A DNA stretch of 38,766 bases from a virus: positions 1 to 38,766 of the IMG/VR virus record IMGVR_UViG_3300030107_005854. The stretch is one strand, 5' to 3'. Under the pieces are notes generated by a model. That model was not told the origin of the DNA. It made no database searches and saw nothing but the letters and a program-made list of their open reading frames with translations. Numbering within the stretch: the first letter of the stretch is position 1; each line of letters starts with the position of its first letter. The translations under genes and the position numbers were made by a program. Of the stretch, positions 8,456 through 32,472 are shown piece by piece.

Positions 8456-8474
8456 CCGGGAAACCACTACCCAT

Positions 8475-8483
8475 TGAAAGGGG
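8475..8483 (+). promoter_or_regulatory. extended ribosome-binding box TGAAAGGGG
   Basis: This box lies 6 bases before the ATG at 8490. The same box precedes the starts at 8973, 11020 (TGAAAGGG), 11304, 11458 (CGAAAGGGG), 12350, 12727 (TGAAAGGAG) and 13767 (CGAAAGGG). AAAGGRG matches the 3' end of 16S rRNA; the conserved leading C-T-G goes beyond what rRNA pairing needs. Confidence 0.7.
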
Positions 8484-8489
8484 TACACC

Positions 8490-8885
8490 ATGAAGAAGCT
8501 TGTACAGGCAGCAAAGGAACTGGGGGAGGAGCTGGCCGACGCGGTCACCCGTGACGGCACTGAGGTTTCACCCGTAGACGAGCCGAAGGAGGACCGGCTG
8601 CCGAAGCGCCTTCGCTTCGTCGGCATGGGCGTCCATCACTGGGGGAATGGGCAGACCTATGAAGAGTGCTGCAAGAACCTGAAAGAGGCAGGCGGGAGCG
8701 GGCGCGTCAAGGCGCTCATCTGGATGTGGGTCGGCGAGGGCGAGGACCTGCCCACCAAGGCATACGCGAACGACTGGGGCGCGCTGTCGTGGGAAGGCAC
8801 CAACGCCCGCCCGATCCTGATTCAGGACCTTCGACCCGCTGAGATGAAGCGCGAGCATCCGGTCGAGATCGGCTCGGTCTGGTGA
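8490..8885 (+). CDS. hypothetical protein, first gene of the rightward unit
   Basis: I do not recognise this 131-residue protein. It begins MKKLVQAAKELGEELADAV and has an acidic, charged N-terminal third, then a compact middle with MGVHHWGNGQTYEECCKNLKEAGG and IWMWVGEGEDLPTKAYANDWGALSW. The His, Trp and Cys pattern suggests a small folded domain, and the name of a function would be a guess. The start is well supported by the TGAAAGGGG box. As the first gene after the divergent promoter region it is likely expressed early. G+C is clearly higher than in the head genes. Confidence 0.65.
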   Translation: MKKLVQAAKELGEELADAVTRDGTEVSPVDEPKEDRLPKRLRFVGMGVHHWGNGQTYEECCKNLKEAGGSGRVKALIWMWVGEGEDLPTKAYANDWGALSWEGTNARPILIQDLRPAEMKREHPVEIGSVW

Positions 8886-8945: not shown

Positions 8946-8972
8946 AATCCTACCCACTGAAAGGGGTACACG

Positions 8973-9191
8973 ATGACGATGATCGAGACACGGGCGGACC
9001 TGTTCAGGGCATACCCGACCGACGAGGATATCGAGCGGCTAGACTGGGCCCTCCATGAGGATATGCACCCGAACGCGGGGAACATGAGCCTGCGCGAGGT
9101 CTGCGAGAAGTACCGGATGACTGCCCGGTTCCTGCTCTCCTATCTGGTGCAGGACGAGGTCCACGAGGACCACCGGGAAGGGGGTGCATGA
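8973..9191 (+). CDS. hypothetical small helical protein
   Basis: This 72-residue protein is unrecognised. The sequence is acidic and mostly helical, with PTDEDIERLDWALHEDM and the segment MSLREVCEKYRMTARFLLSYL, which reads like a helix-turn-helix (REVCEKYRMTARFLLSYLV). A small DNA-binding regulator is possible but unproven. It has the full CTGAAAGGGG box 6 bases before the ATG. Its stop codon overlaps the next start (ATGATGA), at a junction whose 18 bases recur at the end of the following gene. Confidence 0.6.
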   Translation: MTMIETRADLFRAYPTDEDIERLDWALHEDMHPNAGNMSLREVCEKYRMTARFLLSYLVQDEVHEDHREGGA

Positions 9192-10048: not shown

Positions 10049-10320
10049 TGGTAGACCGTATCGAGTTCGACTTCGATGTCCCTGATCCCCACGCGGCGAG
10101 CTGGCTCGCGTCGATGCTCTCGGGCATCATGCGCGGCATGGCGTCGGCGCTCGATGAACACGCCGAAGAGCTGGGCATGGTCCTCCATGACATCATCCCG
10201 GAAGACGAAACGTACGACAACCACCCGCTCGACGGGCTCCGGTCGGCGTTCTACGACGCGGCGGAAGATCTCCGCAAGCACGAAAAGGCTATCCGGGAGG
10301 CGGGTCAAGAATGCGTCTGA
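10048..10320 (+). CDS. hypothetical acidic helical protein
   Basis: I do not recognise this 90-residue protein. After a short strand (MVDRIEFDFDVPD) it is mostly helical and acidic, with WLASMLSGIMRGMASALDEHAEELGMVLHD and a second helix, SAFYDAAEDLRKHEKAIRE, after a Pro-rich linker. No motif is evident. It is coupled to its neighbours by an overlapping start at 10048 and a 10-base overlap with the next gene, so it belongs to the same transcript. Confidence 0.6.
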   Translation: MVDRIEFDFDVPDPHAASWLASMLSGIMRGMASALDEHAEELGMVLHDIIPEDETYDNHPLDGLRSAFYDAAEDLRKHEKAIREAGQECV

Positions 10321-11009
10321 AGGTAATCGCGCAAACCTGTACAAACTTCGGGAAGGGGGCCCCCGGTTCGTTGGGGCTCTCCTTCGCGCCCAGCGCTTCG
10401 GCGCACTGCTCCAAGCGGTGCCCGCACTATGGGACCCGCTGCTACGCGGAGCGCACCGAGAACCGCTACAAAGCATATGCGGCGAAGCTCGACCGGCATC
10501 ACGCGCAGGGGGTCGCGGCCACCTGTCGCGATGCTCTCGCCGAACTTCAATCGGCGCGGCGTGCCGGGTTCACGCCCATATGGTTCCGGTTCATGGTTTC
10601 CGGTTCGCTACCCGCTCGGCCTGGTGCTGATGACGTTCGCGCCTTGCGCGATCTCTGCGCGTGGCTGGTCGGGCACGGCGTGCCGATCCATTTCCCGATT
10701 GAGACAAAAGCGAAAGCGGCACGGTATCGGCGGGCCCTGCGCGGGCTCGGGGTGACTGTCCGCGAGTCTGGGACGACCGAACGGCGATTCGTCGAGGCGT
10801 CCGGGCCCGTGTCGTGGGTCACGGTCGGCGGGGGTGTCGATGCGGCAAAGATCGCGGCATCCAATCGGCGCAAGGCGACCGGGCGCCGGTGCATCGTCTG
10901 CCCTGCTGTCGCTGCACAAAAGCTGAAGACGGGGAGCGACCGGGCGAAGTGCGGAGCCTGCACGGCTTGCGCTGATCCATCTATCGACGTAGTGTACCCC
11001 AGCCACTGA
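10311..11009 (+). CDS. Gp88-like cysteine-rich phage protein
   Basis: This 232-residue protein resembles the phage family around mycobacteriophage gp88 and related DUFs. The N-terminal third has a Cys cluster, SAHCSKRCPHYGTRCYAERTENRY (about 31-54). The C-terminal third has a second cluster, CIVCPAV near residue 195 and AKCGACTACADP near 215, ending VVYPSH. Such paired clusters can bind a metal or an Fe-S cluster; the biochemical role of the family is not known. The middle has IHFPIETKAKAARYRRALRGLGV and TVRES, where a TIM-barrel-like pattern is possible. It is one of the most GC-rich genes in the window. Confidence 0.6.
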   Translation: MRLKVIAQTCTNFGKGAPGSLGLSFAPSASAHCSKRCPHYGTRCYAERTENRYKAYAAKLDRHHAQGVAATCRDALAELQSARRAGFTPIWFRFMVSGSLPARPGADDVRALRDLCAWLVGHGVPIHFPIETKAKAARYRRALRGLGVTVRESGTTERRFVEASGPVSWVTVGGGVDAAKIAASNRRKATGRRCIVCPAVAAQKLKTGSDRAKCGACTACADPSIDVVYPSH

Positions 11010-11019
11010 AAGGGCGACC

Positions 11020-11292
11020 ATGACAATAGACGCCGACTTGCTGCTAGAACCCGCGCACGTTCTGTATAGGGGCGCGGGCGAATACACCAAAAGAGCCAAG
11101 GCCCTGCGCGGCGTGTTCTATGCCCTCGACGATATTCAACGCCTCGCGTGGGGTCTTGATGGGAGCGAACGACTGTCGGCGCAGGTGCGCGATCAGCAGC
11201 GCATGGTCTTGACTGAGCTGCACGCTATCGACGCAATGCTAGAGGACCCCAATCTGCGCTGGTTCATGAAATCCGGTTTTCTTGACAACTGA
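11020..11292 (+). CDS. hypothetical helical protein
   Basis: This 90-residue protein is unrecognised. It is mainly helical, with AHVLYRGAGEYTKRAKALRGVFYALDDIQRLA and LSAQVRDQQRMVLTELHAIDAMLED. It ends in a short non-helical tail. The ATG follows CTGAAAGGG and 5 bases. It lies in the same transcript as the Gp88-like gene, 10 bases downstream of its stop. Confidence 0.6.
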   Translation: MTIDADLLLEPAHVLYRGAGEYTKRAKALRGVFYALDDIQRLAWGLDGSERLSAQVRDQQRMVLTELHAIDAMLEDPNLRWFMKSGFLDN

Positions 11293-11303
11293 AAGGGGCA
11301 ACA

Positions 11304-11978: not shown

Positions 11979-12357
11979 TCACCTGACCCTGTACCACCGA
12001 AGACTGGTGGAAACCTACGGCCTGATCATCGAGGCTATTTACGACTGCAAGGAAAGCTGTCCGGCTGGTTACGACTGGTTCGTCACCGGTGCCAACGGGG
12101 AGAGCGCGTACGAACGTCGCGAACGGCTCTACGAGCTGGCCATGTGCATCGAGTCATGGGTGGACCTCAACATCGGTCGCGAAGACCAGTTCAGCGACAT
12201 CCGGGCCCCAGGACTCGGCGCGTGGGACGGTGATGTCATCCCGGCAATCTGGGAGCGCTTCTGGAGCGAACCGAAGACCCGTACAAACTACACTGAGTGG
12301 GGGCCATCGGCCCTCCGATACCTGAGTTCTCAAATTGAAAGGGGCAACAATGCCTGA
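11971..12357 (+). CDS. hypothetical protein
   Basis: This 128-residue protein is unrecognised. I place the start at the GTG at 11971, which overlaps the previous stop, rather than at an in-frame ATG at 11932 that would overlap by 47 bases. Visible segments are helical: LYHRRLVETYGLIIEAIYDCKE, ANGESAYERRERLYELAMCIESW, and VIPAIWERFWSEP. The end contains the ribosome-binding box of the next gene, so the last residues (ERGNNA) are encoded by that box. Confidence 0.6.
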   Translation: MNDHLTLYHRRLVETYGLIIEAIYDCKESCPAGYDWFVTGANGESAYERRERLYELAMCIESWVDLNIGREDQFSDIRAPGLGAWDGDVIPAIWERFWSEPKTRTNYTEWGPSALRYLSSQIERGNNA

Positions 12358-12589
12358 GACAGCGATGAACCGGCGAATGCTCGCCCAGCGGATTGCAGAC
12401 GATACAACGGGCGGCTGCATCATGACCGCAATGGAGGAGGCCCTGATGGACTCTGTGAACCATGGAGCCTGCACGGCGTGCGGCGAGATTCACTACGACG
12501 CCTGCGAGCCCGACATGAGGAAAGGCTACTGCGAGTTCTGTGAAGAGTCTGCAGTGGCGTCGATCCTTGTGCTTGCGGGAATGATGTGA
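12350..12589 (+). CDS. small zinc-ribbon-like phage protein
   Basis: This 79-residue protein has the pattern of a small conserved phage protein: an N-terminal helix (MLAQRIADDTTGGCIMTAMEEALMD) followed by a Cys-rich segment, CTACGEIHYDACEPD then GYCEFCEESAV. The two CxxC pairs suggest one bound zinc ion. The C-terminus is hydrophobic (ASILVLAGMM). Similar proteins are spread widely in phages with no assigned role. The ATG follows TTGAAAGGGG and CAACA. Its first codons (MPET) resemble those of the genes at 11304 and 11458. Confidence 0.65.
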   Translation: MPETAMNRRMLAQRIADDTTGGCIMTAMEEALMDSVNHGACTACGEIHYDACEPDMRKGYCEFCEESAVASILVLAGMM

Positions 12590-12600
12590 TCTGGTAGAAT
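12573..12600 (+). promoter_or_regulatory. candidate promoter TTGCGG-N16-TGGTAGAAT
   Basis: TTGCGG (12573-12578), a 16-base spacer and TAGAAT (12595-12600) preceded by TGG form an extended -10 promoter pattern that overlaps the end of the upstream gene. A transcript would start near 12607, ahead of the terminator at 12623-12659. It may drive the small RNA described at 12607-12659. Confidence 0.4.
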
Positions 12601-12606
12601 GCAAGC

Positions 12607-12659
12607 CTTCATCCCCTTTCAGGCCCCGCTTGAGTTTGCAAACTCGCGGGGCTTTTTTT
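12607..12659 (+). ncRNA. candidate small RNA complementary to the phage's ribosome-binding box
   Basis: A promoter-like sequence ends 6 bases upstream and a strong terminator closes the unit, leaving a transcript of about 53 nt. Its single-stranded 5' part contains CCCCTTTCAG (12613-12622), the exact reverse complement of CTGAAAGGGG found before the genes at 8973 and 11304, and nearly so before 8490, 11020, 12350 and 12727. It could repress those genes by covering their ribosome-binding sites. No transcription data exist here. The complementarity could also reflect a decayed start site on the opposite strand. Confidence 0.35.
12623..12659 (+). terminator. strong rho-independent terminator
   Basis: GCCCCGC (12623-12629) pairs with GCGGGGC (12646-12652). 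Inside lies the perfect palindrome GAGTTTGCAAACTC with a 2-base bulge on the left arm. Seven T residues follow. It closes the GC-rich small-gene cluster and separates it from the genes that begin at 12727. Confidence 0.85.
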
Positions 12660-12671
12660 ATCCACGCACCC

Positions 12672-12698
12672 CACGGCGCACAATTGGTGTGGTACGAT
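12672..12698 (+). promoter_or_regulatory. candidate promoter with upstream CACGGCGCACA element
   Basis: TGGTACGAT (12690-12698) fits an extended -10 element 29 bases before the start at 12727. CACGGCGCACA (12672-12682), found also in tandem at 8182-8207, lies where the -35 box would be, so an activator or repressor may act here. Confidence 0.35.
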
Positions 12699-12726
12699 TC
12701 GCAAACTCTCACTGAAAGGAGATGCA

Positions 12727-30767: not shown

Positions 30768-31044
30768 CGCCGGTCAGTCCAATGGCGGATTGTTGTACAT
30801 CAGCAATTACAGTGGAGGCGCCGTAATTGCCAAGGTGTACGTTGTGCCGATAATCCACCAAAGCTCGACAATTACAGACCACCTTCTTTGGATTCAATCC
30901 TGCCCAGCCAACAGCACGATCACTTTCAACGAAAATTACCCCATTTATCCTGGCCTTGGATACAGGATAGAAGCGGAAGCGGCATCTAATTCTGCTCTTG
31001 TTTTGTCTGTAATTGGGCAAGGCATTCGAGAAAGAACGGTTTAA
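30715..31044 (+). CDS. small virion-like protein, GTG start
   Basis: This 109-residue protein begins with GTG (MGKINSQTPLTTVRSPIDAGQ). It has a regular beta pattern (GLLYISNYSGGAVIAKVYVVPII, LWIQSCPANSTITFNENYPIYPG, YRIEAEAASNSALVLSVIGQ) as in small jelly-roll proteins on the virion. The start overlaps the previous gene by 53 bases, which is unusual here; a start near 30715 is kept because no later ATG leaves the fold intact. Confidence 0.5.
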   Translation: MGKINSQTPLTTVRSPIDAGQSNGGLLYISNYSGGAVIAKVYVVPIIHQSSTITDHLLWIQSCPANSTITFNENYPIYPGLGYRIEAEAASNSALVLSVIGQGIRERTV

Positions 31045-31047
31045 GAC

Positions 31048-32472
31048 ATGGCGATTACCTACACTGGCACAAACGGTTTGTTTACGCGGTTGGGCAAGCT
31101 TTTTTACGTCCACGAAATCATGGAAACTTTTCAGGGAAACCTGAGAACGGAAGTTGAGGATGTTCTTGATGAGTTTACCAACGCCGACATGTGGCAGCTA
31201 GGTGGCTTGCCCGCTCGCCTTAAGACGTTTGACGCCCCTCTTTCTGCAAATTTTACTGCCATCCAAAACGCGGCAATTAGAATTTTGATGGAAACAGTCA
31301 GGACCGGTCTTTCAAAAGAACCCAAGTCTTTGAGAGAAGCACTTTGGTTCTTAATCCAGGACATGAAAGGCAGCTATTATGTCGAAGCGGTCAACTATTC
31401 GACATCTGGAACGGTTGCCGCAGGGGGGTCAAACGCCGGAAACGGGACAGTTATCGTCAACAGCAATTTGCCAAAAAGCATCATGTCGTCTTCTACTGTT
31501 TATCAGACAATTTACGGAGAAGTCTTGAACATTGAATGCGTCCAAGATGAATCTGGAGATTCTGTTCTTGGGCGAGAAGCTTTTAAGGTTATGGGGAAAG
31601 AGGCCAAAAGCAAGTTCAACTCTGACTGGCCAGCAGGCAGTGGAATTACCAAGCACATGCAAGTCACTTGTGCGAAGACAGACGGCAACCTGGGGAGGCT
31701 TAGGGGTGCTGGCAAAAACATCCTGAGAAACAGCAGTTTTGAGAATTGGGATTCAACAAACGTCATAACCAACTGGACATCAACGCAAGTTGGAAGCGCT
31801 ACGTTTGCGGGTGGATCTGGGCCACAAGTCAAGAACACGACTGCGGCCTACATTTGGAACACCGAAAGTACTGGCAGCTTGCAACTTAACGGAGATTCCA
31901 GTGGGTGGAAACACAAGATTTATCAGGAATTCAATACTCCAAATGGAACAAGAGGAAAAGTTCTTGCCAACAAGAATTACATTCTTTCATGTCGCGTAAG
32001 AATTGCTGCGGGCAGCGGAACTGTGGGCGGAAGCGCAGCAATGAAGTTTGTCATTGAAAACGGATCTGGAAGCGCAACAAGCGCAACCAAAACGCTCGAC
32101 TTGTCAGCCGTTGGGACAAGTTGGACCCACGTTTCCCAGCCATGGGATTTGAGCGATACCGAAATTCCCACAGACGCTCGGTTTGCCATGGAAGTAACCA
32201 CGGCAATTCCAAATAGCGTGTCAATTGTAATTGATGAGCTGGTTCTTGCAGAACGAGTTCAGATGTACCCCGGCGGTCCAGGTTTTATCATTGTGCGAGG
32301 TAGCGCTGACTACAGAACTGGCGACACGTTTACGGTAACGTATGCTCATTCTGCAAGCCCCCCCGCAAACAAGTGGCAATTTTACTTTGACCGCTTTTTT
32401 AACACCGCCTCTTTTAACTACAACCTCCCCTCCGCTGGCGGGTCCGCTATTGCTGACAGCCTGATTGCCTGA
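31048..32472 (+). CDS. virion protein with carbohydrate-binding-like domain
   Basis: This 474-residue protein has a helical N-terminal part (about 1-110, FTRLGKLFYVHEIMETFQGNL, NAAIRILMETVRTGLSKE) and a beta-rich rest. At about 225-405 the pattern NILRNSSFENWDSTNVITNW, KHKIYQEFN, NYILSCRVRIAAGSG and SIVIDELVLAERV matches the CBM4/9-type beta-sandwich, where the N-terminal SFE-W motif is typical. Such domains on phage fibers bind surface sugars. Its place upstream of the two large proteins fits a fiber or receptor-binding role. Confidence 0.65.
   Translation: MAITYTGTNGLFTRLGKLFYVHEIMETFQGNLRTEVEDVLDEFTNADMWQLGGLPARLKTFDAPLSANFTAIQNAAIRILMETVRTGLSKEPKSLREALWFLIQDMKGSYYVEAVNYSTSGTVAAGGSNAGNGTVIVNSNLPKSIMSSSTVYQTIYGEVLNIECVQDESGDSVLGREAFKVMGKEAKSKFNSDWPAGSGITKHMQVTCAKTDGNLGRLRGAGKNILRNSSFENWDSTNVITNWTSTQVGSATFAGGSGPQVKNTTAAYIWNTESTGSLQLNGDSSGWKHKIYQEFNTPNGTRGKVLANKNYILSCRVRIAAGSGTVGGSAAMKFVIENGSGSATSATKTLDLSAVGTSWTHVSQPWDLSDTEIPTDARFAMEVTTAIPNSVSIVIDELVLAERVQMYPGGPGFIIVRGSADYRTGDTFTVTYAHSASPPANKWQFYFDRFFNTASFNYNLPSAGGSAIADSLIA

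What the first reader, a model, noticed from the sequence alone, without database searches (positions are those of the whole stretch)
12573..12659. Possible phage small RNA that targets the phage's own ribosome-binding box
Between a promoter-like TTGCGG-N16-TGGTAGAAT and a strong terminator lies CCCCTTTCAG (12613-12622), the exact complement of CTGAAAGGGG, which stands before the starts at 8973 and 11304 and with one change or a wobble before those at 8490, 11020, 12350 and 12727. The leading CTG of the box exceeds the match to 16S rRNA, which suggests a second partner. The transcript would be about 53 nt with its antisense segment near the 5' end and a hairpin at the 3' end, the usual layout of a bacterial sRNA. 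It could shut down the GC-rich small-gene cluster at a given time in infection.
Basis: partly seen in the sequence, partly recalled or inferred. Interest (0 to 1): 0.85.

Follow-up and report, generated by a model that had tools for sequence, protein, structure and literature searches.

The report
Phage RNA complementary to ribosome-binding boxes
A bacterial virus seems to make a roughly 50-letter RNA whose exposed end is the mirror image of the ribosome-docking signal repeated before its own early genes, and in a related virus whose signal differs the RNA differs to match, so it may be a switch that turns one gene group off; no experiment has yet shown the RNA exists.

Summary
CCCCTTTCAG (12613-12622) lies between an extended -10 (TGGTAGAAT) and a strong intrinsic terminator. 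It is the exact complement of the box before the genes at 8973 and 11304, and one base off before four others. The box is confined to the early small-gene cluster. The window is part of a 48.7-kb IMG/VR virus record with no close GenBank phage relative.

TTCATCCCCTTTCAG is 15/15 invariant in two relatives, while only 49% of the other intergenic columns are, and the terminator hairpin diverges but still folds. In a more distant relative the box is TTTGAAAGGA, and the segment before the terminator in the corresponding region reads TCCTTTCAAA, its exact complement. A third clade (TGAAAGGACC / GGTCCTTTCA) agrees more weakly. Own-versus-foreign swaps favour the own pairing in every clade, and predicted pairing beats the 16S tail at all seven window boxes.

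Main doubts: no transcript evidence, few clades, CU-rich leaders precede several other terminators in this family, and the box core is ordinary Shine-Dalgarno. Best reading: a small antisense RNA repressing its own early operon. It is a new variant of a known kind, confidence about 0.5.

The parts
12573..12578 (+). weak -35-like hexamer TTGCGG, inside the 3' end of the upstream gene
   Evidence: present in L004 (17-nt spacer), displaced in L003 by a 30-nt insertion
12592..12600 (+). extended -10 TGGTAGAAT; predicted transcript start about 12607
   Evidence: resembles the phage's own TGGTACGAT promoter motif; TGGTAGGAT in L003, CTGTAGAAT in L004
12608..12622 (+). invariant block TTCATCCCCTTTCAG; antibox CCCCTTTCAG at 12613-12622, complement of the start box
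   Evidence: 15/15 invariant in three phages against 49% of other intergenic columns; unpaired in the fold except its last A and G
12621..12659 (+). intrinsic terminator: hairpin GCCCCGC..GAGTTTGCAAACTC..GCGGGGC and T7
   Evidence: -21.3 kcal/mol, z -4.46; sequence differs in L003/L004, fold kept
8474..8483 (+). start box TTGAAAGGGG before ATG 8490
8957..8966 (+). start box CTGAAAGGGG before ATG 8973 (exact)
11006..11015 (+). start box CTGAAAGGGC before ATG 11020
11289..11298 (+). start box CTGAAAGGGG before GTG 11304 (exact)
12335..12344 (+). start box TTGAAAGGGG before ATG 12350
12712..12721 (+). start box CTGAAAGGAG before ATG 12727; 13 of 15 nt of CTGAAAGGAGATGCA match the complement of the invariant block
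12690..12698 (+). second promoter TGGTACGAT of the next operon, conserved in L003, L004 and L062

Best explanation
A phage RNA of about 50 nt starts near 12607 and ends at the terminator at 12659. Its single-stranded 5' segment CCCCUUUCAG base-pairs with the Shine-Dalgarno box (CUGAAAGGGG and close variants) before about half of the early small genes at 8.4-12.4 kb and before the first gene of the next operon. The duplex is stronger than box-16S pairing, so it would block 30S binding and lower translation of that operon late in the early phase. Later genes, which use other SD sequences, would be spared. Shown by sequence: the segment, its complementarity, the terminator, conservation in relatives, and change together with the box. 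Inferred: transcription from its own promoter, binding, repression and timing.
For: Exact 10-nt complement between promoter-like site and terminator. Block 15/15 invariant in W, L003 and L004, while 49% of other intergenic columns are, and hairpin sequence changes but the fold is kept. In the distant relative L062/G011 the boxes read TTTGAAAGGA or ATTGAAAGGA, and a terminated segment reads TCCTTTCAAA before the same type of downstream promoter and a small gene in the place of window gene 12884. Third clade L151/L148: boxes TCCTGAAAGGACC, segment GGTCCTTTCA before a hairpin. Swap test: own antibox is best in every row (mean contiguous match 9.0, 9.25, 9.25 against at most 8.4 for foreign; PWM diagonal highest), and random-flank p is 0.028, 0.012 and 0.065. 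Predicted duplex is stronger than with the 16S tail for all 7 window boxes and 7 of 8 in G011. In W, L003, L004 and G011 the antibox is the only CCTTTC site that is followed by a strong hairpin with a T-run and is not itself the complement of a start box, among the top-ranked sites listed.
Against: No RNA data. Only three clades, the third weaker because its GGT can be held in a small local stem. The box core is ordinary SD, so any anti-SD-like tract scores; for the G011 boxes the 16S tail scores almost as well on the flanks (4.24 against 4.39). Anti-SD-like leaders precede 13 of 85 strong terminators in the family against 5.7 expected, so some other cause of CU-rich leaders is possible. The terminal AG of the antibox is partly in the stem. 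TTCATC is invariant but not matched by most boxes. L148/L151 have TTCATC(C/T)CC directly after a gene stop, before a different hairpin. In L004 (G023) the boxes are looser while the antibox is unchanged.
Confidence: 0.5

Rival explanations
1. Ordinary operon-end terminator with a CU-rich leader. The match to the box is a by-product of a family-wide pyrimidine leader, and no regulatory RNA acts in trans.
For: Many terminators of the family have CU-rich leaders, including late ones such as W 47761 and G011 26499/L064 5529; anti-SD 6-mers in 13 of 85 leaders against 5.7 expected.
Against: 15-nt invariance in a fast-changing spacer, exact 10-nt match, own promoter-like -10 kept in relatives, and change of flanks together with the box in L062.
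Confidence: 0.27
2. Same pairing, but the segment is the 3' end of the operon mRNA (read-through or processing) and acts in cis or as a 3'UTR-derived sRNA, with no promoter of its own.
For: The element lies 18 nt after the last stop codon of the box-bearing operon; in L148/L151 a related leader directly follows a gene stop.
Against: TGGTAGAAT / TGGTAGGAT at the right distance in W and L003, resembling the phage's own promoter motif.
Confidence: 0.13
3. Anti-SD mimic: the RNA copies the 16S rRNA tail (UCACCUCCUUUCU) to mask host SD sequences or titrate a factor that binds the tail.
For: TCATCCCCTTTC resembles the 16S tail, and L148-L155 have ATCTCC-type leaders.
Against: The changes away from the 16S tail (CCCC, CAG; CAAA in L062) follow the phage's own boxes, and the duplex with boxes is stronger than 16S-box pairing.
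Confidence: 0.06
4. CTGAAAGGGG on the minus strand is the SD of a minus-strand gene starting at TTG 12604.
For: A 123-aa minus ORF is open in the window with suitable spacing.
Against: The three minus frames in L003 and L004 give no conserved protein and the start is not kept, while the + strand gene 12350-12589 is conserved as protein (90% and 58% identity).
Confidence: 0.02
5. The box and its inverted copy are DNA sites for a phage protein.
For: Would also give co-variation of box and antibox.
Against: The box sits at SD distance from starts and pairs with 16S; the inverted copy is always directly 5' of a terminator and single-stranded in the predicted RNA.
Confidence: 0.02

Closest known systems
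Trans-acting bacterial sRNAs that pair with Shine-Dalgarno regions (general knowledge: C-rich-motif sRNAs such as RsaE/RoxS)
   Same: Short RNA, exposed pyrimidine-rich seed complementary to SD, 3' intrinsic terminator
   Different: Here the seed matches a phage-specific extended box repeated before many genes of one phage operon, and changes with that box; no chaperone or experiment known
c4 antisense RNA of phages P1 and P7 (PMC12197685)
   Same: Phage RNA that blocks the ribosome-binding region of a phage mRNA by pairing
   Different: c4 acts on the one ant mRNA from structured loops; this one has a linear 5' seed and at least seven candidate sites
Start-Associated Sequences of cluster K mycobacteriophages and cluster EF Microbacterium phages (PMC3203893, PMC7302621)
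   Same: Unusually conserved sequence at the RBS of many non-structural phage genes, exceeding the match to 16S; authors left open whether an RNA or a protein binds it
   Different: Different sequence and hosts; in cluster K only the K1-like phages have an antisense copy, in a hairpin loop; none found in AnnaSerena
AgvB/AsxR anti-sRNAs of prophages (PMC12197685)
   Same: Phage-encoded small RNAs acting by base pairing
   Different: They act on host sRNAs, not on phage start boxes

Membership tests
trans-acting antisense sRNA | discrete short transcript with own promoter and intrinsic terminator | tested here: inconclusive
   Terminator strong; extended -10 resembles the phage promoter motif, but the sigma-70 scan did not list it and there are no RNA data
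trans-acting antisense sRNA | accessible seed complementary to target mRNAs | tested here: met
   Unpaired probability about 1.0 over CCCCTTTC; 7 boxes pair at -14 to -17.5 kcal/mol
trans-acting antisense sRNA | seed conserved or co-varying with target | tested here: met
   15/15 invariant in close relatives; co-varies in L062/G011, weakly in L151
trans-acting antisense sRNA | changes target translation or stability | not testable with these tools
   Needs infection or reporter experiment
any Rfam family | match to a covariance model | tested here: not met
   No match over 12573-12659 at E<=1
Start-Associated Sequence (SAS) phages | conserved extended SD before many early genes | tested here: met
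   Boxes before 7 starts, flanks conserved beyond the 16S match
Start-Associated Sequence (SAS) phages | SAS consensus GGGATAGGAGCCC or GGGAAAGGACCCC | tested here: not met
   Box here is CTGAAAGGGG

The most novel reading that the evidence does not exclude
A family of phage 'antibox' RNAs: each phage marks its early operon with its own extended SD box and encodes one terminated small RNA carrying the complement, the pair evolving together as an orthogonal translation-off switch. Start-associated sequences in some actinobacteriophages (cluster K1) may be an independent case.
Probability: 0.3. Interest if true: 0.82.

Novelty: new variant of a known kind. Interest (0 to 1): 0.62.

Why it matters
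A single RNA that silences a whole phage operon through a shared, phage-specific SD box would be a simple timing switch for translation. It would suggest why phages keep start boxes that exceed the 16S match, an open question since start-associated sequences were described, and it could be tested with one reporter plasmid and one small RNA.

Tried and rejected
Minus-strand gene start at 12604: not conserved. Known RNA family: no Rfam match at the site. tRNA or tmRNA in the window: none. Cultured phage relatives: none at DNA level or by the proteins at 10311 and 32484; terminase only below 60% identity. Bacterial genomes with a related exonuclease or RecT: none confirmed. Generality in cluster K: the antisense SAS in Anaya, CrimD, Niklas, Validus and LilPharaoh sits in a hairpin loop, but other cluster K phages keep the same SAS and have a different loop or none, so this is only a lead. 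Cluster EF AnnaSerena: no antisense copy in the 50 kb examined. A search for the whole conserved block plus CCCC found only the two known relatives. Of the seven GGCTGGTCCTTTCACC hits, L180, L181 and L184 lack the hairpin and boxes and were discarded. A generic terminator-leader score without box positions was too noisy to use alone.

Full report
What is there. The window is bases 1-38766 of a 48,673-base IMG/VR virus record. No cultured phage is close: megablast of 8-14 kb found nothing, and the terminase matches GenBank phages only below 60% identity. The stretch 8.0-12.6 kb is a GC-rich cluster of small genes (GC 0.61-0.62 at 8-12 kb against about 0.52 elsewhere). At its end, 18 nt after the stop codon of the gene 12350-12589, comes TTCATCCCCTTTCAG (12608-12622), with TGGTAGAAT (12592-12600) before it and a terminator hairpin and T7 ending at 12659 after it. 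The predicted fold leaves the 5' segment single-stranded. Exact CTGAAAGGGG stands before starts 8973 and 11304, one-change versions before 8490, 11020, 12350 and 12727, and a two-change version before 11458. Shuffles give 0.18 exact copies of the 10-mer per window, both strands.

Conservation. Relatives were found through the helicase, terminase, exonuclease and RecT genes. L003 (88% DNA identity here) and L004 (72%) carry the same place. TTCATCCCCTTTCAG is identical in all three, while 49% of the other intergenic columns are invariant. The hairpin sequence differs in L004 but folds equally well. The -10 is TGGTAGGAT in L003 and CTGTAGAAT in L004; L003 has 30 extra bases before it, so the -35 is not fixed. 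The next promoter, TGGTACGAT, is also invariant and recurs before box genes in L062, so the sRNA -10 resembles the phage's own promoter motif.

Covariation. In L062/G011 (exonuclease 65%, RecT 67% identical) the box genes read TTTGAAAGGA or ATTGAAAGGA. In the corresponding region, before a TGGTACGAT promoter and a small gene in the place of window gene 12884, stands TCCTTTCAAA followed by a -27.7 kcal/mol hairpin and T5. In L151 and L148 the box is TCCTGAAAGGACC (in L151; L148 holds few boxes) and GGTCCTTTCA stands before a -26 to -30 kcal/mol hairpin, with fewer T. A swap test scored each set of boxes against each antibox. The own antibox is best in all rows, including L003 and L004. Mean contiguous match is 9.0, 9.25 and 9.25 for own and at most 8.4 for foreign. 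Random flanks reach the own score with p 0.028, 0.012 and 0.065. The third case is weaker because GGT may be held in a small stem ACTAGCC..GGCTGGT (read from the sequences).

Strength of pairing. RNA duplex energies of the window's seven boxes with the RNA are -14.1 to -17.5 kcal/mol, against -8.4 to -12.7 with the 16S tail. In G011 the own RNA wins at 7 of 8. The 16S tail used is the common bacterial one, since the host is unknown.

Mechanism, inferred. The RNA would cover the SD of the early cluster and reduce its translation once enough RNA has accumulated. Genes after 14 kb use AAGGAGAT-like and other SDs and would be spared. Whether the RNA comes from its own promoter or from the 3' end of the operon mRNA cannot be told from sequence.

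Doubts. Anti-SD 6-mers occur in 13 of 85 leaders of strong terminators in these phages against 5.7 in shuffles, including late terminators that no early box explains. A general reason for CU-rich leaders would make the window's element less special. The final AG of the antibox is partly inside the stem. TTCATC is conserved but mostly unmatched by boxes. L148 and L151 carry TTCATC(C/T)CC before a separate hairpin right after a gene stop. There is no transcript evidence.

Comparison with what is known. Pairing to SD regions is the usual way of bacterial sRNAs (general knowledge), and phage antisense RNAs at an RBS are known (c4 of P1/P7; PMC12197685). Start-associated sequences are known in cluster K and EF phages, with the partner left open (PMC3203893, PMC7302621). 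The single reverse-oriented SAS noted there lies, in Anaya, CrimD, Niklas, Validus and LilPharaoh, in the loop of a predicted hairpin between annotated genes near the right end. It is not kept in the other cluster K phages examined, nor present in AnnaSerena, so it is a lead, not support. In the searches made I found no described RNA that targets a phage's own repeated start box and changes with it; the library holds only open-licence papers.

Noticed in passing
L163 about 31,850-31,900 (Anaya) and L164 about 30,815-30,865 (CrimD), also Niklas L174, Validus L175, LilPharaoh L168: The orphan reverse-oriented SAS of cluster K1 mycobacteriophages lies in the loop of a hairpin with a compensatory pair between Anaya and CrimD; other cluster K phages have a different loop or none.
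   Followed up: partly
window 7851 and 33587; L003, L004 and L062 at several places: GGTACRATYGTACC, a near-palindrome, recurs inside coding sequence (often reading G-T-I-V-P) in all these phages and resembles the start of the TGGTACGAT promoter motif; unexplained.
   Followed up: no
L148 10217, L151 14796, L153 8391, L154 8369, L155 13845: A second set of terminators, 4-5 kb downstream of recT, has leaders ATCTCTTTC, ATCTCCTT, ATCTCCAT or ATCTCCTTTT that resemble the complement of each phage's SD (AAGGAGAT; ATGGAGAT in L154).
   Followed up: partly
record position 47761 (minus strand) outside the window; G011 26499; L064 5529: Late terminators in the family also have CU-rich leaders.
   Followed up: partly
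L071 6934-7527: The relative L062/L071 encodes a protein with a dockerin-like repeat (Pfam PF00404, E 4e-4, just under the cut-off), which from general knowledge hints at a planctomycete-like host.
   Followed up: partly
window 10311-11009: Conserved cluster gene with a DUF7227 domain (E 1.2e-7), 68-99% identical across the close relatives, function unknown.
   Followed up: no
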